64,000 nt of DNA, from NCBI RefSeq assembly GCF_905475395.1, contig NC_058337.1, positions 139,915,879-139,979,878 of the forward strand, read 5' to 3'. The notes beneath the pieces were generated by a model. That model had not been told where the DNA came from. It did not search any database and saw nothing but the letters and a program-made list of their open reading frames with translations. This DNA comes from Chrysoperla carnea. Lineage: Eukaryota > Arthropoda > Insecta > Neuroptera > Chrysopidae. The translations under genes were made by a program, and so were the position numbers. The first letter of the stretch is position 1. Each line of letters begins with the position of its first letter. Of this stretch, positions 13,982 through 59,067 are shown one piece after another.

Positions 13982-16030
13982 TTATAACACTTCAGCACGT
14001 TTCAAGTGTGTGACATGTGTTCTAGTTAATTCGTTAGTTTTTGGATCAATTAATTCTACACTAACTGGAGTTGTAAAACGGACGATTCTTTTAACATCGC
14101 TGAATCGAGGTGAAAATTTTCTGTCTTCGTTGATGTTTGATGCTGTAGGTGGTAGTCTAACCCGTACAAGTTGATTAACGTGGAATTTAACATCAGTTGG
14201 AGCTTGATGTTGTCGTGCTTTTCGCATTACAGTAGCTTTATGCAGTGCCTGCTGGACCATATCCACACTAGGAGGTTTTTCCATAGCCAAAATATCGGTG
14301 GTATTTAGTAATAAATCCAATGGTTGACTCCAAGTTCGACCCAAAAAAACTGCTGCTGGTGAAGCTTTAATAATTGAGTGATATGTCGAATTGTAATTGA
14401 ATATTATAAATGGCAATATTTTATTCCAGTCCTTATGTTTCATTTGGTATTGTTTGATTACGCAGGTTAAATTTATTTTTATATTTCTGTTTATTCTTTC
14501 TGTGATATTACCTTGAGGACGGTAAGGCGAGGTATAACCAATGCGAATTCCATTTAATAATAAAAATTGTGTATATTTATTAGACTTGAAGCTTTTAGCA
14601 TTATCGCTAATTAAAACTTTTGGAAATCCAAATACCATGAAGAGTTGATGTAAAATTTTAATTACCACTGCTGACGTTGCTTTCCTAGTGGGGTAGGCCC
14701 AACAAAACTTGCTATAAGCATCTGTAATAACAAAAATATATTTGAAGCCATTATCTGCAGAAGGTATTAGGGGTCCAATAAAGTCCACATATAGTTTGTT
14801 ATATATACTTTTTTCACTAATTGATGCATCAGGTGCTGAGATTTTATAGTTTATTGGTTTACAGGTAGCACAAACACTACACTTTTTAACATAATCTACA
14901 GTTTTTTTATATAAGTCAGGATATGTAAATCTTTTGGCTATCTCACGATATGTTTTCGTGACGCCTGAATGACATCCAAATACTGAGGAATGAAAGTAAT
15001 CTAATACATAGTCCAATAAAGAATCTGTGAGAACAATACGTTTATTTCTATTGCGCCCAACAAAACGAACTAATAAGCCATCGCGAATTGCAAAATTTTG
15101 TACATTTGAACCTGATTTAATTAATTGGTAAATGTGTCTACAATCTGGAGAAGCTTTTTGTTCCTTTTTTATAGATAAAAAACCTTTGGGGTCAGTTAAT
15201 ATCTGATTAAGAAGTGTAATTGGTTCTATGTTTTTTGATTGAATATTTTCCTCAATATTTGTTTCATTTTCACAAAATAATCTACTTAAACAATCGGCTA
15301 CTACATTTTCTGTGCCTCTAATATGTTCTGTTGTAAAATTAAATTTCGAGATAGTTAATAACCATCTGGAAAGTTTATTAAAACGTTGTGGTGTATTAAA
15401 TAAATACACCAAAGCGTTGCAATCAGTACGTAATATAAATTTTCGATCTAAAAGGTAGTCTTTAAATGTATTTAATGCATGTAAAACAGCCAATAATTCC
15501 AGTTGGTATACTGGGTATTTTGATTCTGCTGGATTAAGTTTTCGCGAACAGTATTCAATTGGATGTAGTTTGTTTTCAAATTTTTGCATTAGACAAGCAC
15601 CTACACCTATAGAACTTGCATCTGTAGTTACTATGAAAGGATGTTTGTCATCAAAAATAGGGAATCGTAAAATTGGTGCCGTAGTGAGCACTGTTTTAAG
15701 TTTATTAATAGCATCCACATGTGTTTGCGTTATAATGAATTTAGCATCTTTCTTTTTTAAGGCATTTAAAGGTGCCACTATAGTACTAAAATTCTGTATA
15801 TATCTAGCGAAGAAGGCTGCCATTCCAAGAAATGATTGTAATTCCTTAAGGTTTTTAGGAATAGGCATAGTTCTAATTGCTTCTACTTTTTCAGGATTAG
15901 GTATCCTACCTTCGGAAGAAATTACGTGTCCTAAGATTTTCAAGCGTTGCATAAAAAATTTTGCTTTATTAGGATTAATAGTTAGTTAAATACCTTGGTC
16001 AGATGCTCTTTCAAATTGACGAGAAGTGGA
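13982..16030 (-). pseudogene. Ty3/gypsy retrotransposon pol remnant (RT thumb, RNase H, integrase)
   Basis: A 656-codon frame (15952-13982) carries the end of reverse transcriptase (LGHVISSEG, FLGMAAFFARYI), a complete RNase H (acidic residues D111, E152, D177, D220; motif TTDASSIGVGA), an H2C2 zinc-binding module (H321/H328, C358/C361) and an integrase core with D390, D450 and E485 (VDFIGP, ISDNAKS, PQGNITERIN). The frame ends in a basic C-terminal domain. Homology continues upstream past an in-frame TAA (15988-15986) to about 16030 and then stops. Gag, protease and the RT catalytic YxDD region are therefore missing. The element is 5'-truncated and cannot be autonomous, although RNase H and integrase are uninterrupted. 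Confidence 0.9.
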
Positions 16031-16622: not shown

Positions 16623-16628
16623 TCTACT
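16623..16628 (+). repeat. Target-site duplication, left (TCTACT)
   Basis: TCTACT directly precedes the element's terminal AG and is repeated exactly at 27907-27912. Six base pairs is the duplication length known for Polinton/Maverick elements. Confidence 0.85.
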
Positions 16629-17939
16629 AGTAGAAGAGTCAAGTCACTCCTGGGCCAGTTTGACCTCAAGTAACCCCACTTTGATGGTACACTTTTCAAA
16701 AAAGGGCAAACCTAGGTGAATGTTGGAAACCTCGGTTGAATGCGAAGTTGGAGGGGATAGATGACGTCATTGACCAATAGTAAATCAAGATGGCGTTGGG
16801 AGGTGTGGTGGGGCGTGGCTGACAGAGCGTTAGTGTGTTTCTTGGTGGAAGTGGGGCTTAAAGTGGTGGGCGTGGTTGACAGGAGTGTGTTTCTTGGAAG
16901 TGGGGGTTAAAGGGGGCGGGAATTGGACGTTAGATAATCGAGCCCACTTTCAACCCAGTTGGATGGTACACTTTTCCAAAAAGGGCAAACCTCGGTTGAA
17001 TGCGAAGTTGGAGGGGGGACGTCATTGGGTTAGACCAATAGTAGCGCTGTAAAAATCAAGATGGCGTTGGGAGGTGTGGTGTTGGGGAATAATGGCTGCC
17101 TAAGCATTGATGACGTCATTGGCTTTGACCAATAGTAGCGCTGTAAAAATCAAGATGGCGTCGGGAGGTGTGGTTGAATTGGTGTGGAGGAATGGCTGCC
17201 TAAGCATAAACGGGGAATTACCAGGTGACGTCATTGGCTTTGACCAATAGTGGCGCTGTAGTCGGCGGAGAGTGAATGGAGTGAACGGGGGGGCGGGACG
17301 TTGACATTAGTCAGCAATTTTCAAGAATATGTTAATTTGACCTTGAAAAATATTGTAATTTGACACTTTAAATATACATGATAAAATTCAAGATACGTGA
17401 CCGGATGTTAATATTTTTTTTTTATTGAGTCAGCGATGTAATATGACACTTGAAATTTACATAATAAAAATACATGTTCAAACTTGTTTGAATGGACTTT
17501 GATCTTAAAATAATTTTACACGTGTCAGCAATTTTCAAGAATATGTTGAAATAGATTTGACCTTGAAAAATATGATATCATCATCTTGTAACAAGTTCAA
17601 ACTTGTTTGAAATAATTTTACATGTGTCAAAACACGTGACCGGATGTTAATATTTTTTTATGATTAAGCAATGTAATATGACACTTGAAATTTACATAAT
17701 AAAAATACATGTTCAAACTTGTTTGAATGGACTTTGATCTTAAAATAATTTTACACGTGTCAGCTATTCTCAAGAATATGTTGAAATAGATTTGACCTTG
17801 AAAAATATGATATCATCATCCTGTTACAAGTTCAAACTTGTTTGAATAAAAATACATGTTCAAACTTGTTTGAACATGTTTAAACTTGTTTGAATCGCAT
17901 TAGATCTTAAAATAATTTTACACGTGTTATGAGATTAGA
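16629..17939 (+). repeat. Left terminal inverted repeat of the Polinton-like element
   Basis: Mirrors 26686-27906, with some indels making the left copy about 90 bp longer. The outer ~700 bp are much more GC-rich than the surroundings and contain repeated modules ('tttccaaaaagggcaaacct', 'gctttgaccaatagt', 'atcaagatggcg'). The inner ~600 bp are AT-rich, with at least six copies of TTCAAACTTGTTTGAA and several ACACGTGT palindromes. The mirror ends at GAGATTAGA (17931-17939). Confidence 0.9.
16757..17300 (+). promoter_or_regulatory. Cluster of CRE, CCAAT and YY1-like motifs in left inverted repeat
   Basis: Three perfect TGACGTCA sites (16762-16769, 17111-17118, 17226-17233) and a fourth imperfect one near 17018 each sit next to 'ttgaccaatag' (CCAAT box) and often 'caagatggcg' (YY1-like). 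GGGGCGGG runs occur near 16915 and 17290. Viral terminal repeats commonly carry such sites for transcription or replication. Function here is inferred. Confidence 0.55.
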
Positions 17940-18076
17940 ATAAAGGTTTTATTTAATAAAAATCTTATAAATATTTTTTTTGTATTTATTAATGATTAAA
18001 ATTTACATTTTAAAAAAAATTTACAGAAAAAAATTATTATTATGAATCTGAAAAAACACACAAAGTATTGGTGACA

Positions 18077-18799
18077 CTACAGTTCAATAAATTCATCAAA
18101 TCCATTCCTATAACGACCTGCATTCATAGAGAAATTTTTCATTATTACAACAAATCCATTTGGTGAACTCCAACAATGTCGACATAAATCATGAAATTTT
18201 TGAAAATTCATATCAGAGCCAACATGATCGTAGAATATGTGTTTTAGATTCATTTCGTCCGTTTTGAATAACACCAAGCAATTAACATTGTCCCTTATGT
18301 TATGCTTTGGAACACGTGCGTAGCTCTGACATAGGTAGAAACAATCAATTTTTCGATGACGACCCATACTAAAGTATTCTCTAATTCTCTGTTGTGAATG
18401 ACAGCTCACATCATCAAAAATGAAAAGACTTTTTTCTCGAGCTTCATTCGGACTAAGAATTTCACTAGTATCACTAAATGGAAAATATCCAACCCCTTCC
18501 ACTAATTTTAAAGTCTCTTCTAGTAATTGATATTTCGGTTGGTAAAGAGATTTACTGTACACATAAATGTTTTCAAAGCGTAAACCGTTTTCATCATAAA
18601 TTAAATTCAACATAACATTGGTTTTACCACAACCACTAGGGCCACATATTATTGTTCGTAGTGAATCTGAAAATAGAGGACCATGATATGTTTGTGTATC
18701 TGTATTTTCTGGTATTAAATTTTCAACACTCAGAGCGGGTTGTTGTTTATGAAAACGCATTTTTAATGTAACTAAGACTAAAATTTCAATACAACCCAT
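18077..18799 (-). CDS. FtsK/HerA-type genome-packaging ATPase
   Basis: A 240-aa P-loop ATPase of the viral A32-like/FtsK-HerA class, expected to drive DNA into capsids. The Walker A motif GPSGCGKT is at residues 53-60. A Walker B strand LFIFDD is at 125-130, followed by a polar S/H region, as in Polinton ATPases. The usual length of this family is 220-260 aa. The second methionine (Met14, nt 18760) begins the part that looks conserved, so the true start may be there. The gene points towards the left inverted repeat and is divergent from the phospholipase gene. Confidence 0.88.
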   Translation of the reverse strand: MGCIEILVLVTLKMRFHKQQPALSVENLIPENTDTQTYHGPLFSDSLRTIICGPSGCGKTNVMLNLIYDENGLRFENIYVYSKSLYQPKYQLLEETLKLVEGVGYFPFSDTSEILSPNEAREKSLFIFDDVSCHSQQRIREYFSMGRHRKIDCFYLCQSYARVPKHNIRDNVNCLVLFKTDEMNLKHIFYDHVGSDMNFQKFHDLCRHCWSSPNGFVVIMKNFSMNAGRYRNGFDEFIEL

Positions 18800-18851
18800 T
18801 TTATAAACATTTAAATATATGTGAACTTAATTGTTTAAATCATTTAGTAGT
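18761..18851. promoter_or_regulatory. Divergent promoter region between ATPase and phospholipase genes
   Basis: The gap between the two start codons is 52 bp (18800-18851), or 91 bp if the ATPase starts at Met14. It contains 'catttaaatatatgtg', a TATA-like AT tract usable in both directions. No other promoter is needed to explain both genes. Confidence 0.4.
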
Positions 18852-19616
18852 ATGTCACATCAGAAGCAACAACACAAAGGAAGAGGTATTGTTAACACAC
18901 TTATAAATAAATTACCGTTTGAGTTACACATACCAACTTATCAATATTGTGGACCTGGAACTAAGCTGGCAGAACGATTAGCGCGTGGTGATAAACCAAA
19001 AAACGCATTGGATCAGGCTTGTATGGTACATGATATAGCATATTCAAAAAGTAAAGACTTAAAGGAGCGTCATCTAGCAGATAAACAATTAGCTGAAGCC
19101 GCTTGGAAACGTGCCAAAGCATCTGATTCAACAATTGGTGAAAAAGCATCCGCTTTATTCGTTACAGGCGCCATGAAGACAAAAACTTCACTTGGTATGG
19201 GATTAAAAAAGAAAAAGACGAAAAAGACAAAGAAAACTATAAACTTTACAGCATCAGTGCGAAAGGCACGAAATGCATTGAAAAAATCACAACCAACGGA
19301 CTTAAAAGCAGCTGTAAAAATAGCAAAAGCAGCCGTGCGAGGTCAACGTATTAAAGCACCCACACGTGTAATACCAGTTCCAAAGTCTGGTGGTGTACTT
19401 CCATTAATTCCAATATTCGCAGGACTCTCTGCTTTAGGTGCTTTGGCTGGTGGAGCGTCGGGTATTGCTAAAGCCGTTACAAATTATAAAAGTGCTCGTG
19501 ATCAACTTAATGAGAGTCAAAGACACAACAAAACAATGGAAGCTATAGCAATGGGTAAAGGCTTGTATTTAAGACCGTACAACAAAGGCATGGGATTATA
19601 TTTAGCAAAAAACTAA
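18852..19616 (+). CDS. Virion protein with parvovirus-type phospholipase A2 domain
   Basis: A 254-aa protein. The first ATG of the frame is at 18852; an in-frame TTG 21 nt upstream is not needed. Residues about 24-90 match the phospholipase A2 fold used by parvovirus VP1: calcium loop YCGPGT (32-37), catalytic helix DQACMVHDIAY with His60-Asp61, and a later Asp77 in HLADKQLAEAA. A lysine-rich stretch (KKKKTKKTKK) follows, then a small-residue hydrophobic segment (PLIPIFAGLSALGALAGG) that could contact membranes. LAGG-A fits the adenain cleavage pattern (L-x-G-G-x). The likely role is endosome escape during cell entry. The C-terminus ends in the slippery heptamer before the TAA at 19614-19616. 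Confidence 0.88.
   Translation: MSHQKQQHKGRGIVNTLINKLPFELHIPTYQYCGPGTKLAERLARGDKPKNALDQACMVHDIAYSKSKDLKERHLADKQLAEAAWKRAKASDSTIGEKASALFVTGAMKTKTSLGMGLKKKKTKKTKKTINFTASVRKARNALKKSQPTDLKAAVKIAKAAVRGQRIKAPTRVIPVPKSGGVLPLIPIFAGLSALGALAGGASGIAKAVTNYKSARDQLNESQRHNKTMEAIAMGKGLYLRPYNKGMGLYLAKN
19607..19613 (+). promoter_or_regulatory. Candidate -1 ribosomal frameshift site (A AAA AAC)
   Basis: In the phospholipase frame the codons read gcA AAA AAC taa, which is a canonical X XXY YYZ slippery heptamer one codon before the stop. A -1 slip enters the open protease frame exactly where its conserved region begins. I did not establish a downstream pseudoknot by eye. Confidence 0.55.
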
Positions 19617-19975
19617 TTGAAACGCTACCACGTAGAGCACTTTACGATACGGAGCTACGTGCGTATGCTAAACAATTTAAAATTCCGTATTTTCGTGGTG
19701 TTTTTATGCGTGACACCCTACCCAAAAGACCATATAAATATGAAACAGGAATTATCAACCATGATGTATCCAAAAATAGTGGTACACACTGGACGGCATA
19801 TAAAAAGTACAATCGAAGTGTCATCTATTATGATAGTTTTGGAAATTTGAGACCGCCAGTGGAAGTCATTAAATATTTTAACGGATGTGACATTCAATAT
19901 AATTTTGATAGGCAACAACAGTTTAATACTCCGATTTGTGGACATCTATGTATACAATTTTTATTAAATAAATAA
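19613..19975 (+). CDS. Adenovirus-type (adenain-like) cysteine protease, entered by -1 frameshift or lacking its own ATG
   Basis: A C5/Ulp1-type cysteine protease that matures virion proteins. It is about 120 aa from the slip site, short but close to compact Polinton proteases. Motifs: FRGVFMRD, catalytic His in GTHWTAY, Asp in YYDSFG, and catalytic Cys in ICGHLC near the C-terminus. The first ATG of this frame (19706) falls inside the conserved FRGVFMRD block, so starting there would remove the conserved N-terminal part. The frame is open back to a TAA at 19556-19558 but contains no earlier ATG. The slippery heptamer at 19607-19613 gives the simplest solution, a phospholipase-protease fusion. 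Alternatives are non-AUG initiation, splicing, or a one-base indel in the A run. Confidence 0.82.
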   Translation, partial: LIETLPRRALYDTELRAYAKQFKIPYFRGVFMRDTLPKRPYKYETGIINHDVSKNSGTHWTAYKKYNRSVIYYDSFGNLRPPVEVIKYFNGCDIQYNFDRQQQFNTPICGHLCIQFLLNK

Positions 19976-20012
19976 ACCAGCAAGTCTTGTATTCACTTCA
20001 TTCAAAATCAAG

Positions 20013-20690
20013 ATGTCATACATGCTTACTTTTACAGGGAATAGCTCTTTTTTAACAACAGACTATTCTCCACCAATTGAATTAGATAAAAATGAAAATT
20101 ATGAAATGGGTCTAGTAGATTTACAAGGGTACAATTCCATACCTAATATACACAGCTACAATAACATGTTTTATTACGATGATAAAGTCATAGAAATACC
20201 ACCAGGATCTTATGAAGTTGAAGATATTGAACGTTATTTAAAAGAAGCTGTAGGCGATGAGGTGACACTACAAATAAATGCTAATACAAATACTTTAAAA
20301 TGTGAAATAAAGTGTACTGTGATAATAAACTGTGAACCATCAGATTCTGTTTGTCGCATGTTGGGATTTAATAAACGAAAACTAGATGCAAATAAAAGGC
20401 ATGAAAGTGACAATACAGTTAATATTTTACCTGTAGAAACAATTTATGTTCAATGTAATATTACAAATGGATCGTATCATAACAATGAAATCAGTCACAC
20501 ATTGTTTCATTTTTCACCAAATCTACCACCAGGTTATAAAATTGTGATACATCCTATGAATGTTATTTATTTACCAATCAACTGTCAAACTATAAGCAAC
20601 ATTACGCTCACGTTAGTGGATCAAACTGGTAAATTAGTTAACTTTCGAGGTGAAAACATTACAATTGGATTACACTTGAAAAAGATATAA
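20013..20690 (+). CDS. Minor capsid (penton-like) protein candidate
   Basis: A 225-aa protein starting at the ATG 37 nt after the protease stop. Its beta-rich N-terminal half (MLTFTGNSSF, YEMGLVDLQGYNSIPNI, FYYDDKVIEIPPGSY) matches what I know of the small jelly-roll proteins next to the protease in invertebrate Polinton-like elements. Position before the large capsid gene supports this. The TAA at 20688-20690 overlaps the ATG of the next small gene by one base. Function is assigned from context and pattern; no catalytic motif exists to confirm it. Confidence 0.65.
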   Translation: MSYMLTFTGNSSFLTTDYSPPIELDKNENYEMGLVDLQGYNSIPNIHSYNNMFYYDDKVIEIPPGSYEVEDIERYLKEAVGDEVTLQINANTNTLKCEIKCTVIINCEPSDSVCRMLGFNKRKLDANKRHESDNTVNILPVETIYVQCNITNGSYHNNEISHTLFHFSPNLPPGYKIVIHPMNVIYLPINCQTISNITLTLVDQTGKLVNFRGENITIGLHLKKI

Positions 20691-20869
20691 TGGGTTTTGT
20701 ATTTAATCATCCTACACGTTATGTTGGAGGCAGTGTTTCTACAAACCGTCTCATAAAACAACCTCAATCGAGCAACAATAGAATAAATAATCACAAACAG
20801 TTATCATACGAAAATAGAAAATTTCTTCAATCAATTGGCTTAAAACTAAAACGGCCAATTGTTGGGTAA
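20690..20869 (+). CDS. Small basic virion-associated protein candidate, 59 aa
   Basis: The ATG at 20690 overlaps the preceding stop codon (TAATG), an arrangement typical of termination-reinitiation. The 59-aa product begins MGFVFNHPTRYVGG, has a polar Asn/Gln-rich centre, and ends in a basic helix followed by LKLKRPIVG. Its placement between two capsid genes and the tight overlap argue for a genuine gene. I do not know its function. It could be a capsid cement or core peptide. Confidence 0.6.
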   Translation: MGFVFNHPTRYVGGSVSTNRLIKQPQSSNNRINNHKQLSYENRKFLQSIGLKLKRPIVG

Positions 20870-20941
20870 AATTTAGTTGCTGGTTTAAAATAAAGAAATC
20901 AGTTATACGAATAAAATTCAATTGTATTAAGAAGAAGAAGA

Positions 20942-22138
20942 ATGGCAGAAATACTAGAAGTGACCAATGTACCTGAGTACGATAATGTTATTACAGGACT
21001 AGAGTATCACAACCACCAAGCTTATAATTCATCGAAATTTGAATCAAGCGATGAGAGTAGAATTTGCATTCAATCACAAGACTTGTACACATTACCAAGT
21101 GAAAGTGTTTTAAATATCGAAGGTCAAGTGACTGATGATGATGATACAAATGCAGCCAGCTTCATATCGAATGCTATATCATTTATGTTTCATGAAATTC
21201 GTTATGAAATTGGTGGTAAGGTAATTGATGTGATTAATAACGTAGGCATCGTTAGCACTATAAAAAACTATCTATCCCTAAACGAAAATCAAAGTAAAGC
21301 TTTAGAGAATGCTGGCTTTGGTGAAAATTTTAAAAAGAATGCTGCTGGTTACTTCAATGTTCGTATTCCGTTGAAAATGTATATGGGTTTTTTTGAAGAT
21401 TATCCTAAAATTCTCGTAAACATGAAACAAGAAATCGTTATTGTTCGTGCAAATGATGATATTAATTGTTTTACCTCAACTGTCGCAACAAGCAAACCTA
21501 AAATTAAAATCAACAAATTAGAATGGTGTGTTCCATACGTTAAAGTGTCTGATAAAATGCGAGTCGAATTATACAACTTAGTCAATCAAAATGATGATTT
21601 GAGGTTATGGTTTCGATCAATGGAATGTCTACTTATACCAGAACTACCATTAACTGATAGACATGTGTGGAGTGTTAAAACTAGTGTAGAATGTCCTAAC
21701 TACGCTGTTATCTGTTTCCAAACAAATCGTGACCGCAACATTTTAAAAGATTCCAGTCAGTTTGACCATTGTAACATAACAAATTTGAAAGTCTATTTAA
21801 ATGGTGAAGCCTACCCATATGTGAATTTGAATCTAAATTACACAAATAATCAAACAGCGTTACTGTATGAAATGTATTGTAATTTTCAAAAATCGTACTA
21901 TAGACGCTCTATAACAGAACCATTGCTAGATAAAGAAACGTTTATAAATAAATCACCTCTATTTGTCATTGACTGTTCGAAGCACCCAGAGTCACTTAAA
22001 TCTACAACAGTGGACTTGCGCGTTGAGTTTGAAGCTAGTGTTAATTTCCCAGCTAAAACGCGTGCGTATTGTATAGTGTTCCATGATCGATTATTTAAAT
22101 ACAATCCACTCACGAATATTGTGAATAGAGTAGTTTAA
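20942..22138 (+). CDS. Major capsid-like protein (probable double jelly-roll)
   Basis: A 398-aa beta-rich protein starting at 20942 after an AAGAAGAAGAAG purine run. It is the largest product of the element and sits in the expected capsid position. It has no catalytic motifs, many alternating hydrophobic strands, and a pattern (FMFHEIRYEIGGKVID near residue 80, then a long second half ending AYCIVFHDRLFKYNP) consistent with two stacked jelly rolls. Classical Polinton major capsid proteins are longer (500-650 aa), so this is a compact version or a divergent family. It is followed after one base by the next ATG. Confidence 0.65.
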   Translation: MAEILEVTNVPEYDNVITGLEYHNHQAYNSSKFESSDESRICIQSQDLYTLPSESVLNIEGQVTDDDDTNAASFISNAISFMFHEIRYEIGGKVIDVINNVGIVSTIKNYLSLNENQSKALENAGFGENFKKNAAGYFNVRIPLKMYMGFFEDYPKILVNMKQEIVIVRANDDINCFTSTVATSKPKIKINKLEWCVPYVKVSDKMRVELYNLVNQNDDLRLWFRSMECLLIPELPLTDRHVWSVKTSVECPNYAVICFQTNRDRNILKDSSQFDHCNITNLKVYLNGEAYPYVNLNLNYTNNQTALLYEMYCNFQKSYYRRSITEPLLDKETFINKSPLFVIDCSKHPESLKSTTVDLRVEFEASVNFPAKTRAYCIVFHDRLFKYNPLTNIVNRVV

Positions 22139-22139
22139 A

Positions 22140-22628
22140 ATGGCGTACATAGTGGACGTACAGGGTTTCAAAGTAAACAATGAATTCATCGTTAAAGAAC
22201 TTAGTTTTGTGGATACAAATGGGAACCATTTTGGACATTATGTATTCAAACCACCATTTCCATTTAACACATTAAGTGATTCAGATAAGAAACAAACAAT
22301 TTGGCTCTCAAATAATTACCATGGCTTATACTGGAATCAAGGAGCCACCGATTATTGTGAGTTATCAACCATTTTAACACATATTGCTAATCATAATGTA
22401 ATATACTGCAAAGGTGAAGAAAAGAAAATTTGGATTAAAAAATTAATTCGAAATTCAACAAGGGCAGTCCACATTGAAAATTTGGATGGTGGAAAACCAC
22501 TCCATAAGAATGACAGTGTATCAAAAGCTCTATGCATCTATCAACATAAACATTGTACTACAAATATTATTATGTATTTATTACATTATTTTTTTAATAG
22601 ATCTTTATACGGAGGTGCTTGTTGTTGA
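22140..22628 (+). CDS. Uncharacterised conserved-looking protein, 162 aa
   Basis: Starts one base after the capsid stop, so it probably shares the transcript. The N-terminus (MAYIVDVQGFKV, KELSFVD) followed by a WLSNNYHGLYWNQG block and an IYCKGEEKKIWI strand suggests a small alpha/beta fold. The spacing recalls an RNase H/exonuclease-like fold starting with a DxQG motif, but the later acidic residues are not clear enough to claim activity. Genes of this appearance accompany capsid-type genes in other invertebrate elements as far as I recall. The C-terminus is Cys-rich (GGACC). Confidence 0.6.
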   Translation: MAYIVDVQGFKVNNEFIVKELSFVDTNGNHFGHYVFKPPFPFNTLSDSDKKQTIWLSNNYHGLYWNQGATDYCELSTILTHIANHNVIYCKGEEKKIWIKKLIRNSTRAVHIENLDGGKPLHKNDSVSKALCIYQHKHCTTNIIMYLLHYFFNRSLYGGACC

Positions 22629-22899
22629 TAAATTAGTGTTAATGATTAAAAAAGTTTTAACAATAAATAATATTAAAAAATAAAATAATTGTCTTTATTC
22701 CTATTTTGTATTTTGTTTTAATCTAAAATTGTAATTTTTTTTAAATAAAATTTTTTTTTATCTTATCTGTAGTACAAGTTGATTTATTATTCCTTATAAA
22801 GAGCATATTATATAGGTTGATTGATGATACTTGTTAGGTTATTAAGCGCTGTTTATCAACTGTATAGGTCATTTAATTTGTGATCTTTCATGTGATAAC
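22629..22899. other. Intergenic region of the element with promoter of the next gene
   Basis: AT-rich, with AATAAA near 22744 that could end the capsid transcript. The last ~140 bp, from about 22765 through the next ATG, is duplicated at 25531-25705. Confidence 0.5.
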
Positions 22900-23874
22900 A
22901 TGCTTCAGACAACGAATCAGCTAGCTAAGTTGAGAGATATTATACAGAAAAAGTATAACGCACTCAAAGCTGATGAACAAACAGCGACCATTTCATTAGA
23001 AAAAACATTTAAGCCCATCACTGATCCGTTGAATAAGCTAGTAGAAAAACAAGAGAACAAAAATGATTTTACTCGAATTAATATAAAACGCAAGATGGAA
23101 GATGATACCTTAGAAGACAATAAAGATGAACTATTAAATTATACGCCAATGAAGGCTAGAAAATTATTTGAAGATACTCCAGTAGTCACAAAACAAAATC
23201 TATCAGACACCTATGAGGATGATGCATTACACACTCCTGATGTTGTATTTAGGGAGATTATAAAATCACCAGAGAATAATCAGCATGCACTTCAGCATTT
23301 TACAAAGACTTATGGAGATATGGCCGGTAAATACATTTATTTTATATTATCGAATAAAGATGATAAGCTTATCGATAATACTTACGGATTACGTTATGAT
23401 AATGCTGCTGATAGATTATATGTAGGTAATTCAGTTGTTCACATTAAGCATAACGATATACAAGTCAACGAAAAATGGTACGACGGGACATCAGGTTTAT
23501 ATGAGCTTTTAGTAAAACAGATACCAAAACATTATTCAGAGCAAGACATGCGTAACTATTTAGAAATTGTAACATCAACAAACGCTAATAGACGGAATTA
23601 TGACTCTCGGGGTCAAATTCAAGGAACTAGAGGTTTAAAGTATAAAAAAATCATTAAGAAACATCTATACCCATCGGCTCCTGCTTCTGGTAGCGGTCTA
23701 ACATTATCACGAGTAACTAATAATCCCATAGATTATGTGTACTGGAATACAATCGACGAACTTTGCGACAGATTACGGCTGTTATGCGCATCACGTGACG
23801 CGGGAAATTTCAACCATCAAAATGAAATCAATAGTTTGATACAAGAGTTAAGGGAAGAAAATATAATATACTGA
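22900..23874 (+). CDS. Uncharacterised element protein, 324 aa (C-terminal helical module)
   Basis: Starts at the ATG in 'gataacatgcttcag'. The N-terminal ~50 residues look helical or coiled (LAKLRDIIQKKYNALKADEQ). An acidic linker containing TPMKARKLFEDTP follows, then a globular centre (DMAGKYIYFILSNKDDK, VNEKWYDGTSGLYELLV) and a C-terminal helical module (DYVYWNTIDELCDRLRLLCA ... INSLIQELREENIIY). Proteins with this centre and tail are common, to my knowledge, in insect repetitive DNA, without assigned function. The same C-terminal pattern recurs in the zinc-finger gene downstream. A terminal-protein or virion role cannot be excluded. Confidence 0.65.
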   Translation: MLQTTNQLAKLRDIIQKKYNALKADEQTATISLEKTFKPITDPLNKLVEKQENKNDFTRINIKRKMEDDTLEDNKDELLNYTPMKARKLFEDTPVVTKQNLSDTYEDDALHTPDVVFREIIKSPENNQHALQHFTKTYGDMAGKYIYFILSNKDDKLIDNTYGLRYDNAADRLYVGNSVVHIKHNDIQVNEKWYDGTSGLYELLVKQIPKHYSEQDMRNYLEIVTSTNANRRNYDSRGQIQGTRGLKYKKIIKKHLYPSAPASGSGLTLSRVTNNPIDYVYWNTIDELCDRLRLLCASRDAGNFNHQNEINSLIQELREENIIY

Positions 23875-23879
23875 AAACA

Positions 23880-24000
23880 AGACTGGTTTCTAAACAGACC
23901 AGTATTAAACAGATCAAAACCAGTATTAAACAGATACAGACCAGTATTAAACAGGTTAAAACCAGTATTAAACAGACCTGTTTCTAAACAGACCTATTAT
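23880..24000 (+). repeat. Short interspersed array with CAGTATTAAACAG units
   Basis: Four to five copies of 'accagtattaaacag' alternate with CTGTTTCTAAACAG hairpin-like units, between two coding genes. Related units form the array at 25700-25870. Confidence 0.8.
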
Positions 24001-24054
24001 TTCAAGATACACCATCAATCAGTTCACAACCGATACAGTTTTTTTTTGATAAAC

Positions 24055-24963
24055 ATGTTTAAATGTGAATACTGTGATCTCATATTTTCTCGGAAATTTA
24101 ATAAAAATAGACACATCCAGCGTTGTCACACCTCTGATTTCAACAATGCTATTCAAAATATATATAATGATAAAGATTGTTCTATTGCTGAATCTAGTAA
24201 AAGAAAACGAACATTGAGCAATTCTTCAAAGAGTTCGGAATCTATCGTTGCTAAAACTTCAAAGTTAAAACCAAATGATGATGAATCATATGATGATATT
24301 TCATTTAATGAATCAGAGGGTAGCAATCAAAGGTTCAACAATGCTATTCAAAATATACATAATGATAAAGATTGTTCTATTGCTGAATCTAGTAAAAGAA
24401 AACCAACATTGAGCAATTCTTCAAAGAGTTCGGAATCTATCGTTGCTAAAACTTCAAAGTTAAAACCAAATGATGATGAATCATATGATGATATTTCCTT
24501 TAATGAATCAGAGAGTAGCAATCAAAGGTTCAACAATGCTATTCAAAATATACATAATGATAAAGATTGTTCTATTGCTGAATCTAGTAAAAGAAAACCA
24601 ACATTGAGCAATTCTTCAAAGTGTTCGGAATCTATCGTTGCTAAAACTTCAAAGTTAAAACCAAATGATGATGAATCATATGATGATATTTCATTTAATG
24701 AATCAGAGAGTAGCAATCAAAAGTTTAATCTGAAAATGAGTAGTGATAGAAGCAAATTGGATAATTCACAAACTAAACAATACAAGGAATATGAATCAGC
24801 TATGAATAGTAAGAGTGTCCTAGAGGTTGATGAAAATATTTCTTATTATAATATTGATCCCAATGTATTAATTGATACATTAAGAAGTCTATATTCTACT
24901 GATGTTGGAAAAGAAATACTGTCTATAATTCATCACTTGCGAAAAAAAAATATAATTAAATAA
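24055..24963 (+). CDS. C2H2 zinc-finger protein with triplicated 65-aa repeat
   Basis: A 302-aa protein from the ATG at 24055; an upstream in-frame TTG at 24046 is not required. A single N-terminal C2H2 finger (CEYC ... HIQRCH, residues 4-25) is followed by three almost identical 195-bp/65-aa tandem repeats (24139-24333, 24334-24528, 24529-24723), each with a basic SSKRK patch and an acidic DDESYDDISFNES patch. The C-terminus (DPNVLIDTLRSLYST ... ILSIIHHLRKKNIIK) resembles the C-terminal helical module of the 22900-23874 protein. Possible roles are DNA binding at the inverted repeats or transcription control, both inferred. Confidence 0.7.
   Translation: MFKCEYCDLIFSRKFNKNRHIQRCHTSDFNNAIQNIYNDKDCSIAESSKRKRTLSNSSKSSESIVAKTSKLKPNDDESYDDISFNESEGSNQRFNNAIQNIHNDKDCSIAESSKRKPTLSNSSKSSESIVAKTSKLKPNDDESYDDISFNESESSNQRFNNAIQNIHNDKDCSIAESSKRKPTLSNSSKCSESIVAKTSKLKPNDDESYDDISFNESESSNQKFNLKMSSDRSKLDNSQTKQYKEYESAMNSKSVLEVDENISYYNIDPNVLIDTLRSLYSTDVGKEILSIIHHLRKKNIIK
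24139..24723 (+). repeat. Tandem repeat, three copies of 195 bp, in frame
   Basis: Copies differ at only a few bases, so the expansion is recent. The period is a multiple of three and the reading frame is preserved. Confidence 0.93.
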
Positions 24964-25263
24964 CAAGTTGATATTAACTTTTAACATAAAATTAGTAATT
25001 TCTTATTAAAAATCATTTAGTAATACGTTCTATGAATAATTTTTCTATTAAAAATAAAACAGTCTATCAAGATAAAACATTTTTATTATTTTAAAAAATA
25101 CATCCATCATATTTCCCAATCCTAGGTATAAGTGTAGAAGATGTTTGTGAATCAATATGAATTCTAATTCAAAATAATGAATTTACCTTAAATGATGACT
25201 TAAAAATATCAAGTTCATAATTTGATTAGATTCTGGAATAAGTGCAAACATACAAATACTCAA

Positions 25264-25510
25264 ATCAAACCGATACTGCACCAAATTACTCCGATATTAC
25301 TCCAAATTACTCCAAATTACTCCGATATTACTCCAAATTACCCCCAAATTACTCCGATATTACTCCAAATTACTCCGATATTACTCCAATATTACTCCAA
25401 ATTACCCCAAATTACTCCGATATTACCCCAAATTACCCCGATATTACTCCAAATTACTCCGATATTACTCCAATATTACTCCAAATTACTCCAAATTACT
25501 CCGATAATAC
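25264..25510 (+). repeat. Minisatellite, 10-11-bp ATTACTCCAA / ATTACTCCGAT units
   Basis: About 23 alternating units in an uninterrupted run. No other array of this unit was noticed in the window. Confidence 0.92.
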
Positions 25511-25530
25511 AGCAGGGTAAATTTTTTTAT

Positions 25531-25705
25531 CTAATCTGTAGTAAAAGTTGATTTATTATTATTCCATGTAAAGAGCATATTATATGGGTTGAATGATGAT
25601 GCTTGTTAGATTATTAAGCACTGTCTATCAACTATATGGGTCACTTAATTTGCAAGCATTCATGTGATAACACGCTTCAGACAGCGAAACAGCTAGCTAA
25701 GTTGA
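25531..25705 (+). pseudogene. Duplicated promoter and first codons of the 22900-23874 gene
   Basis: Matches about 22765-22935 with point changes, including 'gagcatattatat', 'catgtgataaca' and 'cagctagctaagttga'. The start codon is changed (ACG for ATG at the equivalent place) and the similarity stops after about 12 codons, where the 16-bp array begins. This is a truncated duplicate, not a gene. Confidence 0.85.
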
Positions 25706-25870
25706 ACCTGTTTAGATACAGACCTGTTTAGATACAGACCTGTTAAGATACAGACCTGTTTAGATACAGACCTGTTAAGATACAGACCTGTTTAGATACA
25801 GACCTGTTTAGATACAGACCTGTTTAGATACAGACCAGTATTAAACCGAGCTGTTTCTTATTAGACCTGT
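25706..25870 (+). repeat. Minisatellite, 16-bp CAGACCTGTTTAGATA units
   Basis: About nine units, a few with one changed base or lacking a T, followed by degenerate units containing 'cagtattaaac' that connect it to the array at 23880-24000. Confidence 0.9.
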
Positions 25871-26207
25871 TTAGATTTTATATTTATTTTTAAAATTACA
25901 TCATAACCTATTGAGAACTCAGTATGAACGGTGTTTTTGCGAACATACTTGTAACAATAAAAAAAATGCCATAGTGGACCGCTTTTGTGAACATATTTGT
26001 GTTTTATAAAAAAAAATAAAAAATATCACATTGTAAAAATATTATTTTTATTGTAAGTTTCTTATTTAAAAAAACAGTGTTGTATTATAAATATTTAAAA
26101 ATAAAAATACATAGATTTTATAAAATGATTTTTTATTCGGAAATTTCTGATGTATAACAATAAAATATATATATCTTGCAGTAACAAAATTCAATATAGG
26201 AATGATT

Positions 26208-26573
26208 TTAAAATAATGCTTGACTTTCTTCTTCGATGTCAACACAATCTTCGTTAACATCATCTTCGAATAGGCGCAGCGTTAATTGGTGACTTCTTCC
26301 AATTTTCTCCTCCACCATCAAATACCCCGGTTTTGTGTTAAATAATTTAATCATGTTGTCCGTCAACACTGCAAACCTAGATGGTAGAAAAACACCCTCG
26401 TTTTCTGTACCATCTAGGCTTATATCCAGTAAAACTTTTATTGATGGCCCATGTATCGTTAGAATCCGCTCCATTTTTAGTATTTTTAATTTTTTTTTCA
26501 GTGGCAAGTAGTCCATTTTTATGCATGGTCGCACTAAACAACTATCTAATAATTTTAATTCTGCTCTATTCAT
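26208..26573 (-). CDS. Small protein, possible OB-fold ssDNA-binding type, 121 aa
   Basis: A minus-strand gene next to the right inverted repeat, ATG at 26573. A core of short beta strands (LKILKMERILTIHGPSIKVL, GVFLPSRFAVLTD, GYLMVEEKIG, LTLRLFE) with an acidic C-terminal tail (DDVNEDCVDIEEE) resembles OB-fold ssDNA-binding proteins, which often have acidic tails. This is a pattern-level inference only. A TATA box (minus strand of 26632-26640) sits about 60 nt upstream. The gene is transcribed towards the interior of the element. Confidence 0.55.
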   Translation of the reverse strand: MNRAELKLLDSCLVRPCIKMDYLPLKKKLKILKMERILTIHGPSIKVLLDISLDGTENEGVFLPSRFAVLTDNMIKLFNTKPGYLMVEEKIGRSHQLTLRLFEDDVNEDCVDIEEESQALF

Positions 26574-26631
26574 TTTGATTAATATTATGAATATTTAATG
26601 AAAACTGATATTACCGTAATGTCGAGCGCCT

Positions 26632-26640
26632 TTTTTATAT
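26632..26640 (-). promoter_or_regulatory. TATA box of the 26208-26573 gene
   Basis: ATATAAAAA on the minus strand followed by the GC-rich AGGCGCTCGAC. The distance to the ATG leaves room for a start site near 26605 and a ~30-nt leader. Confidence 0.5.
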
Positions 26641-26685
26641 GATTACCACCACTCCAAAAATCCCCCCCACCAGCAGAAATTATTA

Positions 26686-27906
26686 TCTAATCTCATAACA
26701 CGTGTAAAATTATTTTAAGATCTAATGCGATTCAAACAAGTTTAAACATGTTCAAACAAGTTTGAACATGTATTTTTATTCAAACAAGTTTGAACTTGTA
26801 ACAGGATGATGATATCATATTTTTCAAGGTCAAATCTATTTCAACATATTCTTGAGAATAGCTGACACGTGTAAAATTATTTTAAGATCAAAGTCCATTC
26901 AAACAAGTTTGAACATGTATTTTTATTATGTAAATTTCAAGTGTCATATTACATTGCTTAATCATAAAAAAATATTAATATCCGGTCACGTGTTTTGACA
27001 CATGTAAAATTATTTCAAACAAGTTTGAACTTGTTACAAGATGATGATATCATATTTTTCAAGGTCAAATTAACATATTCTTGAAAATTGCTGACACGTG
27101 TAAAATTATTTTAAGATCAAAGTCCATTCAAACAAGTTTGAACATGTATTTTTATTATGTAAATTTCAAGTGTCATATTACATTGCTTAATCATAAAAAA
27201 ATATTAACATCCGGTCACGTATCTTGAATTTTATCATGTATATTTAAAGTGTCAAATTACAATATTTTTCAAGGTCAAATTAACATATTCTTGAAAATTG
27301 CTGACTAATGTCAACGTCCCGCCCCCCGTTCACTCCCCGTCAAGCACCACTATTGGTCAAAGCCAATGACGTCACCTGGTAATTTCCCGTTTATGCTTAG
27401 GCAGCCATTCCTCCCCACCAATTCAACCACACCTCCCGACGCCATCTTGATTTTTACAGTGCTACTATTGGTCAAAGCCAATGACGTCATCAATGCTTAG
27501 GCAGCCATTATTCCCCAACACCACACCTCCCGACGCCATCTTGATTTACTATTGGTCAATGCCGAGGTTTCCAACATTCACCTAGGTTTGCCCTTTTTGG
27601 AAAAGTGTACCATACTTTGGGGTTGAAAGTGGGCTCGATTATCTCATCTAACGTCCAATTCCCGCCCCCTTTAACCCCCACTTCCAAAACCGCGCCCACC
27701 ACTTTAAGCCCCACTTCCGCCAAGAAACACACTAACGCTCTGTCAGCCACGCCCCACCACACCTCCCAACGCCATCTTGATTTACTATTGGTCAATGACG
27801 TCATCTATCCCCTCCAACTTCCGAGGTTTCCAACATTCACCTAGGTTTGCCCTTTTTGGAAAAGTGTACCATCCAACTGCGCTGAAACATACATGACTCT
27901 TCTACT
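26686..27906 (-). repeat. Right terminal inverted repeat of the Polinton-like element
   Basis: Inverted copy of 16629-17939. It begins TCTAATCTC (26686-26694) and ends TGACTCTTCTACT. Modules occur in mirrored order with a few indels, for example one palindromic repeat unit and parts of the outer region differ. Confidence 0.9.
27280..27810 (-). promoter_or_regulatory. Cluster of CRE, CCAAT and YY1-like motifs in right inverted repeat
   Basis: Perfect TGACGTCA at 27367-27374, 27482-27489 and 27796-27803, each next to 'ctattggtca' (CCAAT on the minus strand), and 'cgccatcttgat' blocks. This mirrors the left cluster. Confidence 0.55.
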
Positions 27907-27912
27907 TCTACT
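27907..27912 (+). repeat. Target-site duplication, right (TCTACT)
   Basis: Exact copy of 16623-16628, directly after the element's terminal CT. Confidence 0.85.
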
Positions 27913-34028: not shown

Positions 34029-34110
34029 GCTGCGGTGTCCGAGTGGTTAAGGAGATGGACTTGAAATCCATTGGGTTCTACCCGCTCAGGTTCGAATCCT
34101 GTTCGCAGCG
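34029..34110 (+). tRNA. tRNA-Ser (TGA)
   Basis: 82 nt. The acceptor GCTGCGG pairs with TCGCAGC (one G-T) and the discriminator is G. A box GTCCGAGTGG, anticodon loop CTTGAAA with anticodon TGA, a variable arm of serine type, and TTCGAAT in the T loop are all present. Intron-less; looks functional. Confidence 0.92.
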
Positions 34111-34190
34111 ATTCTTTTATTTTAAATTATTCTTATTTAAATGCAAATATAATTCGATTCACTGATTGCTGCATTCATGTTAGATATGGA

Positions 34191-34268
34191 GCTGCGGTGT
34201 CCGAGTGGTTAAGGAGATGGACTTGAAATCCATTGGGTTCTACCCGAACAGGTTCGAATCCTGCAGCG
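34191..34268 (+). pseudogene. tRNA-Ser (TGA) pseudogene, shortened 3' end
   Basis: Identical to the upstream tRNA through the anticodon and variable arm, but a few bases are missing at the T-arm/acceptor junction ('cctgcagcg' for 'cctgttcgcagcg'), which destroys the acceptor stem. Confidence 0.82.
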
Positions 34269-34971
34269 ATTGTTATTTTAAATTTTAATATGCCAAAATA
34301 TCGAAAGTGGAATTTAATTTGAGGGATGTAGCTTCTGGATTTCAAGTTTGTCAAACTGACATCACGATTAACTTTTTAAAAGAGAAGATAATTTGTTTTC
34401 ACTTACCCCATTTTGTGGGGGTATAATTGGATACATCTAAAAAAATATAATCATACCACGTTCCCAAAAGCACGTATAATTTTCCATATTTAGACTGTGA
34501 TTCCTCAGATATATGAAAAAATCCGTGTTCTAGGGTTTTTGCGCCCATAGGTACTGTTGCTTTACTTATCAGGAATTATCAAAATAGATAGTTATAGTTA
34601 TGTTGGTTAAAACATGAAATTTTGGGTGTTTCATGCTTCCATACCGGATTAATGCAATAATCTATTGAAGAAAATCCGTGTGCAGACACTCACTTTCAAA
34701 TAATTTTTCTAAAGATGAACACAATTTATCTAACGATAAATTTTACGAAAATGTCATTAACGTTATAATATTCTTCTTCCATCATCTTTTAAATTTGTCG
34801 GGAAATTTGTTTGAATTTTCCTTTTTTCTTAAAATTGTGTTCTCTGTGAACAAGAAAAATTGTGATAAACTAGATTTGTTGATTCGCTTAGATAAAAATA
34901 CAATTTATTTGCAACTGGTGCAACCCAGCCAATTTAAATAGACTGTCTAGACATATAAAAATTTAAATAAA
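34269..34971. other. Unique spacer inside the tRNA inverted duplication
   Basis: AT-rich. The 87-codon frame at 34678-34941 begins at a non-ATG codon and is Phe/Asn/Leu-rich; I do not consider it a gene. Confidence 0.55.
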
Positions 34972-35053
34972 CGCTGCGGACAGGATTCGAACCTGTGCGG
35001 GTAAAACCCAATGGATTTCCAGTCCATCTCCTTAACCACTCGGACACCGCAGC
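34972..35053 (-). tRNA. tRNA-Ser (GGA)
   Basis: 82 nt on the minus strand with a perfect 7-bp acceptor stem (GCTGCGG/CCGCAGC). The anticodon loop reads CTGGAAA, giving anticodon GGA, a one-base change from the TGA copies. Possibly a functional isoacceptor switch. GGA tRNA-Ser genes are uncommon in eukaryotes, so it may equally be a mutated copy. Confidence 0.75.
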
Positions 35054-35133
35054 TTGATATCTAACATGAATGCAGCAATCAGTGAATCGAATTATATTTG
35101 CATTTAAATAAGAAAAATTTAAAATAAAAGAAT

Positions 35134-35215
35134 CGCTGCGGACAAGATTCGAACCTGTGCGGGTAGAACCCCATGGATTTCAAGTACATTTCCTTAACCA
35201 CTCGGACACCGCGAC
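35134..35215 (-). pseudogene. tRNA-Ser (TGA) copy with stem mutations
   Basis: The 5' acceptor is GTCGCGG against 3' CCGCAGC (two mismatches), and the anticodon stem has a G-to-T change (GTACTTGAAATCC). Probably inactive. Confidence 0.75.
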
Positions 35216-57815: not shown

Positions 57816-58235
57816 ATATATATTCATCCAATATAAACAGAGTATATATGAAATTTATTGAATAGTTGACAGGTTAATTATATCGATATCAACATTTAAA
57901 CTTGGCTAGGTGTATTTTCGAATATCATATTAAATTCACTGATAATTTTATATCAGTTAGCAGTAACCTAGATTTATCATAATATATAACAGAAATCATA
58001 ACAAACCCCTGTTTATTTCGAGCTAGATTTTAATCTGTATACTGAAGTCATGTGAAGCTTTACTACTAAATTTTTCAAAACTGAAATAAAAGTATCTTTT
58101 TCAAAAATTTTGATCGAAGTCTAATTTGCGATTTTCCGAGAGGTTATGGAAAATGAAATTTTTCCAGCTTTTCTGTTAATTTGACTTTATTTCGAGTCGA
58201 TCGGTAAAAATCCCATCTTTGAAGCATGTATTCGC

Positions 58236-58555
58236 TGTGTGCGTAGTCATGGTAGGGACAATAAAATCGAGGGGTGTTACGATTAATTTGCAATTCTTTA
58301 CATGTTAATGATTAATTTGCAATTCTTTACATGTTAATGTAAAGTATCAAATTAAAATTATTGAAAAACACTAATTAATTAAACTTAATGCATTAAAAAT
58401 TGTGAAAATAAGAAATCAAATTGCACAAATATTATTTTTTAAATGTAAATTATCTTAACTATTTATTTAAATTTGTGAGACAATATTATTAAATTTTCAA
58501 TGTAAGTCATAAATGCAATCCATAAAACGCCTCTTATAAAACTCACCCACAAAAA
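58236..58555 (+). repeat. Repeat family D, copy 2
   Basis: As 51874-52230, with an internal tandem duplication of 'gattaatttgcaattcttta' (about 58282 and 58310). Confidence 0.85.
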
Positions 58556-59067
58556 TCGTTACTGTTAGTACTTAAAGTGCAACAAGGCCCAAATTTTTTA
58601 GAGCTTTAAACTACAAACAAAAATTAAATTCATATTAAAAATCTGATTTTTTCATAGACTTTTTGAGGGATGAAAATCGTAAAAATCACGTTTTGGTGGT
58701 AATGTTGCTAAAATTTAAAAGTAGCTTGGGAGTTTAAGTTAGACAGTGAAACAGTGCACACATAAATTATTGTTGTATTTAAACTTAATAAAAAAATTTT
58801 TACATCAATCACTACTAATACTGACGTGAAAGATACACACCTAACTAATACATATAAAACATTACACCTATATTATATCTACTCACCTTGAGTGAGTAGA
58901 TCACAACAAATTGTATAACAATTTATATGTATAAATTAAAAACAATTTATATTAAAAACAAATTATTTAATTCAAAAAATCATAGAAATAAAAAAAAAAA
59001 AAAAAAAATAAAATCATACTAACTGAATAAGTTACAATATACACCACATACACTGAAAACACTCAAT

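What the first reader, a model, noticed from the sequence alone, without database searches (positions are those of the whole stretch)
16623..27912. Complete Polinton-type insertion without DNA polymerase B or integrase
Both termini (AG...CT), a 6-bp target duplication (TCTACT twice) and 1.2-1.3-kb inverted repeats are intact, yet the two hallmark replication/integration genes are absent from all frames while the virion module is complete. This could be a virus with a divided genome whose polymerase/integrase partner sits elsewhere, a satellite mobilised in trans, or a distinct lineage with another replication strategy. Bidnaviruses are a known case of PolB and parvovirus-like genes being recombined.
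Basis: partly seen in the sequence, partly recalled or inferred. Interest (0 to 1): 0.88.

Follow-up and report, generated by a model that had tools for sequence, protein, structure and literature searches.

The report
Polinton lacking its copying genes
This stretch of an insect chromosome (probably a green lacewing's) is a shortened virus-like mobile element that keeps most particle-making genes but lost the genes for copying and inserting itself; complete relatives elsewhere in the same genome carry those genes and probably supplied them, so it looks like a freeloader rather than a new kind of virus.

Summary
In detail: a TSD-flanked 11,278-bp Polinton/adintovirus-type insertion (16629-27906) has ATPase, PLA2, protease, capsid and other genes but no PolB or integrase. 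The host genome (probably Chrysoperla carnea) explains it. Four sister copies, 96.4-97.5% identical over the shared part, carry both; 17 of 31 close MCP copies sit with both. Here an exact junction at 25932/25933 removes a fibre-like gene plus INT, and an inverted left-type end replaces the PolB half. The junction recurs with 0 mismatches at three independent loci: a C5 copy with intact ends and its own TSD, and two stripped 6.3-kb forms, one with a TSD. Loss therefore predates insertion, which was most likely served in trans. The reverse class is commoner: 56 of 77 PolB copies have no MCP beside them, and 0 of 56 a full PLA2 gene; 9 of 10 tested have perfect TSDs. Some derivatives (4 of 36) are end-symmetric, like copy-back defective genomes. 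So: a helper-dependent swarm, not a new replication strategy; an obligate divided genome is not shown. By-products: a probable -1 frameshift fusing PLA2 to protease (5 of 5 lineages read) and a Maelstrom/arenavirus-exonuclease-like gene.

The parts
16623..16628 (.). TSD, left copy (TCTACT)
16629..17939 (.). left TIR (about 1.31 kb); terminus AGTAGAAGAGTCA 16629-16641
18077..18799 (-). packaging ATPase, 240 aa
   Evidence: Pfam Pox_A32 3e-9
18831..19616 (+). PLA2 minor-capsid-type protein, 261 aa
   Evidence: Pfam Phospholip_A2_4 7.1e-15
19607..19613 (+). -1 slippery heptamer A AAA AAC just before the PLA2 stop
19559..19975 (+). adenain-like cysteine protease in the -1 frame (first ATG of the frame at 19706)
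   Evidence: PDB adenain and S273R only at E 0.36, no Pfam hit; homologous frame in 4 divergent copies
20013..20690 (+). 225-aa protein at the penton/minor jelly-roll position (no Pfam hit; named by position)
20942..22138 (+). major capsid protein, double jelly-roll, 398 aa
   Evidence: PF21738 3.3e-95; C. carnea LOC123302882 96%
22140..22628 (+). 162-aa RNase H-fold protein with E-C-H-C pattern (Maelstrom / arenavirus NP exonuclease-like)
22900..23874 (+). DUF8207 family protein, 324 aa
   Evidence: PF26634 precomputed on 74 of 75 relatives; no Pfam hit for the protein itself
23976..25705 (.). segment (bounds approximate) absent from the full sister copies read; holds ORF 24046-24963, minisatellites and a degenerate copy of 22753-22933
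24046..24963 (+). 305-aa ORF with a C2H2-like N-terminal finger and 195-bp internal repeats
   Evidence: zf-C2H2 0.0016, below its curated cutoff; 100% identical in the C5 copy
25932..25933 (.). junction where the fibre-like ORF and INT (about 1.6 kb in the sister L028) are missing
26154..27906 (.). right end of left-end type (p121 + TIR) in place of the PolB block
26208..26573 (-). p121, 121-aa unknown protein, otherwise at the end opposite PolB; 110 matches in the genome
26686..27906 (.). right TIR (about 1.22 kb)
27907..27912 (.). TSD, right copy (TCTACT)

Best explanation
It is a non-autonomous, recombinant deletion derivative of a full-length Polinton/adintovirus-type element living in the same genome. 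Shown: the full elements have the order TIR-ATPase-PLA2/protease-penton position-MCP-RNaseH-like-DUF8207-fibre-like-INT-(PolB on the other strand)-TIR; this copy lacks the fibre-like gene and INT at one exact junction, and its PolB half and right end are replaced by an inverted left-type end. Shown: the same junction sits at independent loci, in a second virion-bearing copy and in stripped short copies. Inferred: the event happened on replicating linear DNA; PolB and integrase from full (or, for PolB, PolB-only) copies act on any molecule with these termini, so the derivative was copied, possibly packaged in shared particles, and inserted in trans with the usual 6-bp duplication.
For: Sisters with INT and PolB and own TSDs (PolB exon 2 hits DNA_pol_B_2 at 1.1e-7, above cutoff; motifs in order). 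Collinear 96.4-97.5% identity with four full copies up to 23975. A 401-bp probe over both junctions is whole at 5 places, and the 41 bp round junction 1 match with 0 mismatches at 4 other places, one of them the duplicate. C5 copy: 13,317 bp, intact ends, TSD GCTAAC twice; 6,274-bp form, TSD CCTAAC twice. PolB-only class: 56 of 77 PolB copies without MCP at the expected distance, none of the 56 with a full PLA2, 9 of 10 with perfect TSD, plus L023/L024 (TCTAGA twice). Window v. C5 over 6 genes: 16 synonymous, 7 nonsynonymous differences, pN/pS 0.11.
Against: No transcripts, particles or free DNA could be examined. The low pN/pS may have been inherited by recombination with full copies rather than show selection on the derivative; it leaves out the C5 ATPase (frame broken) and MCP (split between two fetched stretches), and DUF8207 is much looser (21 nonsynonymous, 11 synonymous against the C3 copy). 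The virion-bearing form with this junction is rare: two insertions (C1, C5) plus a duplicate of the first. One of the two 6.3-kb copies (C6:6.45 Mb) and one of 10 PolB-only copies have no matching flanks.
Confidence: 0.86

Rival explanations
1. Obligate divided (multipartite) virus: virion-only and PolB-only elements are the segments of one genome.
For: Clean split: 56 of 77 PolB copies lack MCP at the expected distance and 0 of 56 has a full PLA2; 11 of 31 MCP copies lack PolB. Shared termini; 66 of 77 PolB copies are at least 96% identical to the query exon, nearly all with open frames.
Against: 17 of 31 MCP copies sit with both PolB and full INT, so no division is needed; neither half carries INT; numbers are very unequal; no packaging or co-occurrence data.
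Confidence: 0.07
2. In-situ decay: a full element inserted here and later lost INT and PolB by chromosomal deletion.
For: Broken, truncated and rearranged copies are common in this family.
Against: Junction 1 is shared with 0 mismatches by copies on C5 and C6 with other flanks (and, for two of the three, other perfect TSDs); both TIR ends here are intact.
Confidence: 0.03
3. A distinct Polinton lineage with its own replication strategy, a hidden replicase lying in one of the unknown genes.
For: Several genes have no Pfam match; the 162-aa protein has a weak PHROG hit to a genome terminal protein (E 0.055); the C2H2 ORF and p121 are absent from the four full copies read.
Against: The 162-aa gene and DUF8207 also occur in PolB-bearing sisters; the 162-aa fold is nuclease-like; p121 also sits in PolB-bearing elements; near-identical full sisters exist. 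The folds of p121 and the C2H2 ORF were not tested.
Confidence: 0.02
4. Assembly artefact or haplotig effect creates a seemingly incomplete element.
For: The copy at C1:139566055 is a duplicate with flanks 99.93% identical, so copy number at this locus may be inflated.
Against: The C5 copy has other flanks, another TSD and a different far end.
Confidence: 0.02

Closest known systems
Insect Mavericks with a PLA2 protein (Sf Mavericks, PMC5803895, passages read)
   Same: ATP, PLA2-bearing CAP, PRO, rve INT and POLB, as in the sister copies here
   Different: that paper found no homologue of the PY (double jelly-roll) protein in Sf Mavericks, whereas this family has a clear DJR capsid gene; and this copy has neither INT nor PolB
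Adintoviruses (PMC11071296, section 16 read); Polintons/Mavericks in general (6-bp TSD, AG...CT ends: recalled)
   Same: DJR capsid, packaging ATPase and adenain-type protease; sister copies add PolB and integrase
   Different: this copy lacks both enzymes and has left-type ends on both sides
Meldvirus genomes with adenovirus-class virion proteins but no recognisable PolB and integrase (PMC11071296, section 16 and a figure legend)
   Same: virion genes without PolB/INT already reported as an observation
   Different: the one pictured there (Meld19810) carries a primase-helicase and tyrosine recombinase instead; here complete relatives in the same genome, the shared junction and independent insertions point to trans-mobilised defective copies
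Non-autonomous transposons; copy-back or symmetric defective genomes of adenovirus-like linear replicons (the latter recalled, no call)
   Same: keep the termini, lose enzymes, depend on helpers; end duplications and palindromes
   Different: large, and retaining open capsid genes
Segmented bidna-like viruses such as Vesanto virus (PMC8363768, passages read)
   Same: modules spread over several molecules with similar inverted ends
   Different: no evidence here that the modules travel or are required together

Membership tests
Polinton/Maverick element (as integrated DNA; defining features partly recalled) | 6-bp TSD and long TIRs with AG...CT termini | tested here: met
   19 of 20 further family members tested on C1 also have perfect TSDs
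Polinton/Maverick element (as integrated DNA; defining features partly recalled) | PolB | tested here: not met
   present in sisters
Polinton/Maverick element (as integrated DNA; defining features partly recalled) | rve integrase | tested here: not met
   present in sisters (rve 3.5e-15)
Polinton/Maverick element (as integrated DNA; defining features partly recalled) | ATPase, protease, DJR MCP, penton | tested here: inconclusive
   ATPase and MCP by Pfam; protease only E 0.36; penton by position only
Non-autonomous derivative of a Polinton family | same termini and high identity to enzyme-bearing copies; derived junction at independent insertions | tested here: met
Divided-genome virus | complementary modules on separate molecules with matching ends | tested here: inconclusive
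   complementary classes exist, but full copies also exist and neither half has INT
Divided-genome virus | modules packaged and required together | not testable with these tools
   no reads or particles available
Bidnaviridae | parvovirus-like NS1 helicase and capsid together with PolB | tested here: not met
   DJR capsid, no PolB; no parvovirus NS1 family among the Pfam hits of the nine ORFs scanned

The most novel reading that the evidence does not exclude
The lacewing genome holds a functional division of labour among one Polinton family: PolB-only elements (the majority of PolB copies), virion-only elements and stripped elements are all replicated, packaged and inserted with enzymes pooled from full copies, and arise as copy-back (two-left-ended or palindromic) genomes during protein-primed extrachromosomal replication, i.e. 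fossilised defective-interfering genomes of an active insect DNA virus.
Probability: 0.35. Interest if true: 0.8.

Novelty: new variant of a known kind. Interest (0 to 1): 0.57.

Why it matters
Polintons/Mavericks are argued to be viruses, but particles have not been observed (abstract of PMC8097293, seen in search listings). A swarm in which enzyme-less copies, some of them copy-back-like, are inserted with perfect TSDs is genetic evidence that members of one family share replication and integration proteins in trans, and points to a host where free DNA and particles could be looked for. It may also explain some of the reported virion-protein genomes without PolB or integrase.

Tried and rejected
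Viral-contig scans with the MCP, an MCP alignment and the last PolB exon found no relative. PHROGs gave nothing informative for the unknown ORFs: hits of the C2H2 ORF fall in its repeats (best 6.7e-5, unknown function), and the 162-aa protein has only E 0.055 to a genome terminal protein; NCBIfam was run only on INT, the PolB exons and the ATPase. The last PolB exon has no significant Pfam, PHROG, NCBIfam or PDB-sequence match (best Pfam 0.11, Intein_splicing); PolB rests on exon 2 and on motif patterns (patterns recalled). A second insertion of the window element was first suspected at C1:139566055 and rejected as a duplicate. Downstream RNA structure at the frameshift site is weak (z -1.2 to +1.5 against mononucleotide shuffles, 6 sites in 5 copies). 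The DUF8207 model was searched only in the viral library, where the one significant match is a bracovirus namesake. Literature: no paper holds Chrysoperla plus polinton, none holds the phrases tried for non-autonomous or defective polintons or Mavericks; two hold Maelstrom plus polinton (listing only). These searches cover only the open-licence library.
Full report
OBSERVATION. The element spans 16629-27906 (11,278 bp) with 13-bp termini, a TCTACT duplication on both sides, and long inverted arms including 385 bp at 100%. Pfam identifies a Pox_A32-type ATPase, a PLA2 domain and a double jelly-roll capsid protein. Against the sister copies' genes, nothing of INT or of three PolB exons is found inside; the only INT-like hit in the window is a gypsy-type integrase at 14348-14800, and all else is at E 0.2 or worse. 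The host is probably a green lacewing: the capsid protein matches Chrysoperla carnea LOC123302882 at 96% (species inferred from that name only), and the assembly holds 559,487,470 bases in 337 contigs. The window is the very end of contig C1.

SISTER COPIES. A search with the outer TIR gave 116 matching rows (40 of 255 first-look candidates scored). Seven copies were fetched first (one of them, L033, not to its end). Four (C3:17.97, C1:139.12, C4:34.60, C6:10.99 Mb) hold the same virion genes plus a 231-aa fibre-like ORF, an rve integrase (3.5e-15), p141, PolB and p159; in the C6:10.99 copy the INT and DUF8207 frames are broken. PolB is split into pieces: the 95-aa piece between the two long ORFs hits DNA_pol_B_2 at 1.1e-7, above its cutoff, and occurs at 99-100% in all four and in L024; the last exon has the A, B and C motif patterns in order, which none of the other 15 proteins has together (patterns recalled). 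All four have identical 6-bp flanks of their own.

WHAT WAS LOST AND HOW. Window DNA is collinear with these sisters from the left arm to about 23975 (96.4-97.5% in the long blocks). Then 23976-25705 is extra (C2H2-like ORF and minisatellites). Window 25706-25932 matches up to the start of the fibre-like ORF, and 25933-26126 resumes a few bases behind the INT stop: about 1.6 kb holding nearly exactly the fibre-like gene and INT is missing. After 26126 the PolB block is absent; instead come p121 and a TIR. p121 lies beside the left TIR in the full C1:138.217 Mb element, and 1.2-2.4 kb from one terminus in 10 of 14 non-nested PolB-only elements on C1, PolB being on the other side (one of the 10 has two p121; 31 of 110 p121 rows were used). 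So the window element has left-type ends on both sides. Its p121 is 98% identical to that of the PolB-only element at C1:91.02 Mb, and the 25933-26240 stretch also occurs there at 94%. The likely event is one recombination at 25932/25933 between a virion-bearing genome and an inverted p121-type left end (inference).

BEFORE, NOT AFTER, INSERTION. A 401-bp probe over 25840-26240 is found whole at 5 places: the window, C1:139575271, C5:66421137, C6:6455591, C6:4115529 (40 of 314 candidates scored). The C1 partner is a duplicate: 9.0 kb of left and 9.1 kb of right flank are 99.93% identical. The C5 copy is independent: 13,317 bp, both termini present, TSD GCTAAC twice, virion genes, no PolB, an INT C-terminal fragment only, p121 at both ends, ATPase frame apparently broken. 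The C6:4.11 Mb copy is a 6,274-bp form without virion genes, TSD CCTAAC twice; the C6:6.45 Mb copy is similar (6,271 bp) but without matching flanks. The 41 bp around the junction match with 0 mismatches in all of these. Loss of INT therefore precedes the C1, C5 and C6:4.11 insertions, and since insertion with 6-bp duplications still happened, integrase most likely came from full copies.

CENSUS. From hit lists (lower bounds, by distance and strand, not by reading each copy; 46 of 105 MCP rows, 77 of 78 PolB rows and 64 of 131 INT rows used, divergent lineages dropped), 31 MCP copies of at least 90% identity and 340 aa split into 17 with PolB and full INT, 2 with PolB without INT, 1 with PolB and a broken INT, and 11 without PolB (7 without INT, 4 with INT pieces). 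Of 77 PolB copies, 21 have MCP at the expected distance and 56 do not; 53 have neither MCP nor INT beside them. Of the 56, 0 has a full PLA2 gene beside it, 8 a partial one, 48 none; of the 21, all 21 have a full one (54 of 154 PLA2 rows used). The terminus pattern occurs 154+152 times against 68+69 for the reversed control, so many single hits are chance. Pairing the 100 listed places, all on C1, within 40 kb gives 34 elements: 8 full, 15 PolB-only, 2 virion-only (the window and its duplicate), 8 with none of the three, 1 other. TSD test of 20 of these 34: full 7 of 7, PolB-only 9 of 10, none-of-three 3 of 3 perfect. So enzyme-less forms insert as cleanly as full ones.

END SYMMETRY. Of 36 elements examined by gene position (31 of the 34 C1 pairs, the three outer members of nests left out, plus 5 others), 4 are mirror-symmetric to within 3 bp of distance from the two ends: two PolB at 4136/4134; p121 at 1486/1486 with INT fragments at 3063/3065; p121 at 1347/1345; PLA2 at 2409/2412. 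C5 has p121 at both ends, at unequal distances. A pair of MCP and PLA2 genes on C4 shares one exact centre, but its ends were not checked. Such forms are what copy-back synthesis or end exchange on linear protein-primed genomes would give (family knowledge, recalled); chromosomal inversion-duplication was not excluded.

SELECTION. Window against C5 (both without PolB and INT): 16 synonymous and 7 nonsynonymous differences over 6 genes (PLA2, penton position, 162-aa gene, DUF8207, C2H2 ORF, p121), pN/pS 0.11; window against four full copies 0.20-0.22, DUF8207 being much looser. p121 shows 4 synonymous and 0 nonsynonymous differences between the window or C5 and the short C6 copies. Because the copies recombine, this shows that the genes have been constrained somewhere in the swarm, not that the derivative itself was selected.

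BY-PRODUCT 1, FRAMESHIFT. The PLA2 frame ends GCA AAA AAC TAA, and the protease frame is the -1 frame behind it, with the first ATG inside the protease at 19706. Four divergent copies of the same genome (MCP 33-45% identical) were read. All 5 of 5, window included, have an in-register X XXY YYZ heptamer in the overlap (A AAA AAC three times; AAATTTT/TTTTTTT; GGGTTTT); background is 20 of 1902 codons in the window genes. A hand product over the overlaps gives about 3.5e-5 if independent, which related lineages are not quite. One copy (L049) has an ATG just behind the site, so internal initiation is not excluded there; no strong downstream structure was found. One copy of a divergent lineage (C5:69945770) shows a 412-aa open frame at PLA2 where its nearest relatives show 291, consistent with an in-frame fusion. 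PMC11071296 (section 16 read) suggests slippery sites for penton isoforms and for hexon-adenain fusions; a PLA2-adenain site is not mentioned in that section.

COMPARISON. The full copies resemble PLA2-bearing insect Mavericks (PMC5803895, passages), which however were said to lack a PY/double jelly-roll homologue, and adintoviruses (PMC11071296). The window copy fails two defining features (PolB, INT) and is best called a non-autonomous derivative. That virion-protein genomes without recognisable PolB and integrase exist is already in print (PMC11071296); the source copies, the shared junction, the independent insertions and the large PolB-only class in one genome are what this adds. I found no paper on them in the searches made (mostly listings).

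Noticed in passing
window 19559-19975; L048, L049, L050, L051: Conserved -1 frameshift-type overlap between the PLA2 gene and the protease gene; 5 of 5 copies read have an in-register slippery heptamer.
   Followed up: partly
window 22140-22628: RNase H-fold protein with E-C-H-C pattern resembling Maelstrom and arenavirus NP exonuclease; DVQ where DEDDh exonucleases are recalled to have DxE.
   Followed up: partly
host contig C1, 138.2-139.98 Mb: 27 of the 34 terminus-bounded elements on C1 lie in the last 1.8 Mb of a 140-Mb contig: a trap or piRNA-cluster-like region, or poor purging.
   Followed up: no
host C1:139906852-139912065, just left of the window: Remains of a second, distant Polinton lineage (MCP 34%, PLA2 53%, INT 51%), also present beside the duplicate 366 kb away.
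   Followed up: no
window 7574-37569 and host C1:139557000-139587000: Segmental or haplotig duplication about 366 kb apart near the contig end, flanks 99.93% identical; its extent was not determined.
   Followed up: partly
window 58001-64000: Strong strand skews (GC skew -0.20 to -0.28, AT skew +0.23 to +0.29) at the very contig end with a 468-aa ORF 59068-60474 that looks gag/ORF1-like (CCHC-type knuckle by eye): perhaps an end-targeting retroelement.
   Followed up: no
window 34029-35215: Four tRNA-Ser genes, two on each strand.
   Followed up: no
host C1:138451995-138463921 and 138348619-138363673; C6:3112245-3123455; C6:1425473-1436108: Mirror-symmetric (palindromic) family members, copy-back-like.
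   Followed up: partly
L023:2331-2825; L038:4554-5045: p164, a further unknown gene beside p121 at left-type ends, no Pfam match.
   Followed up: no
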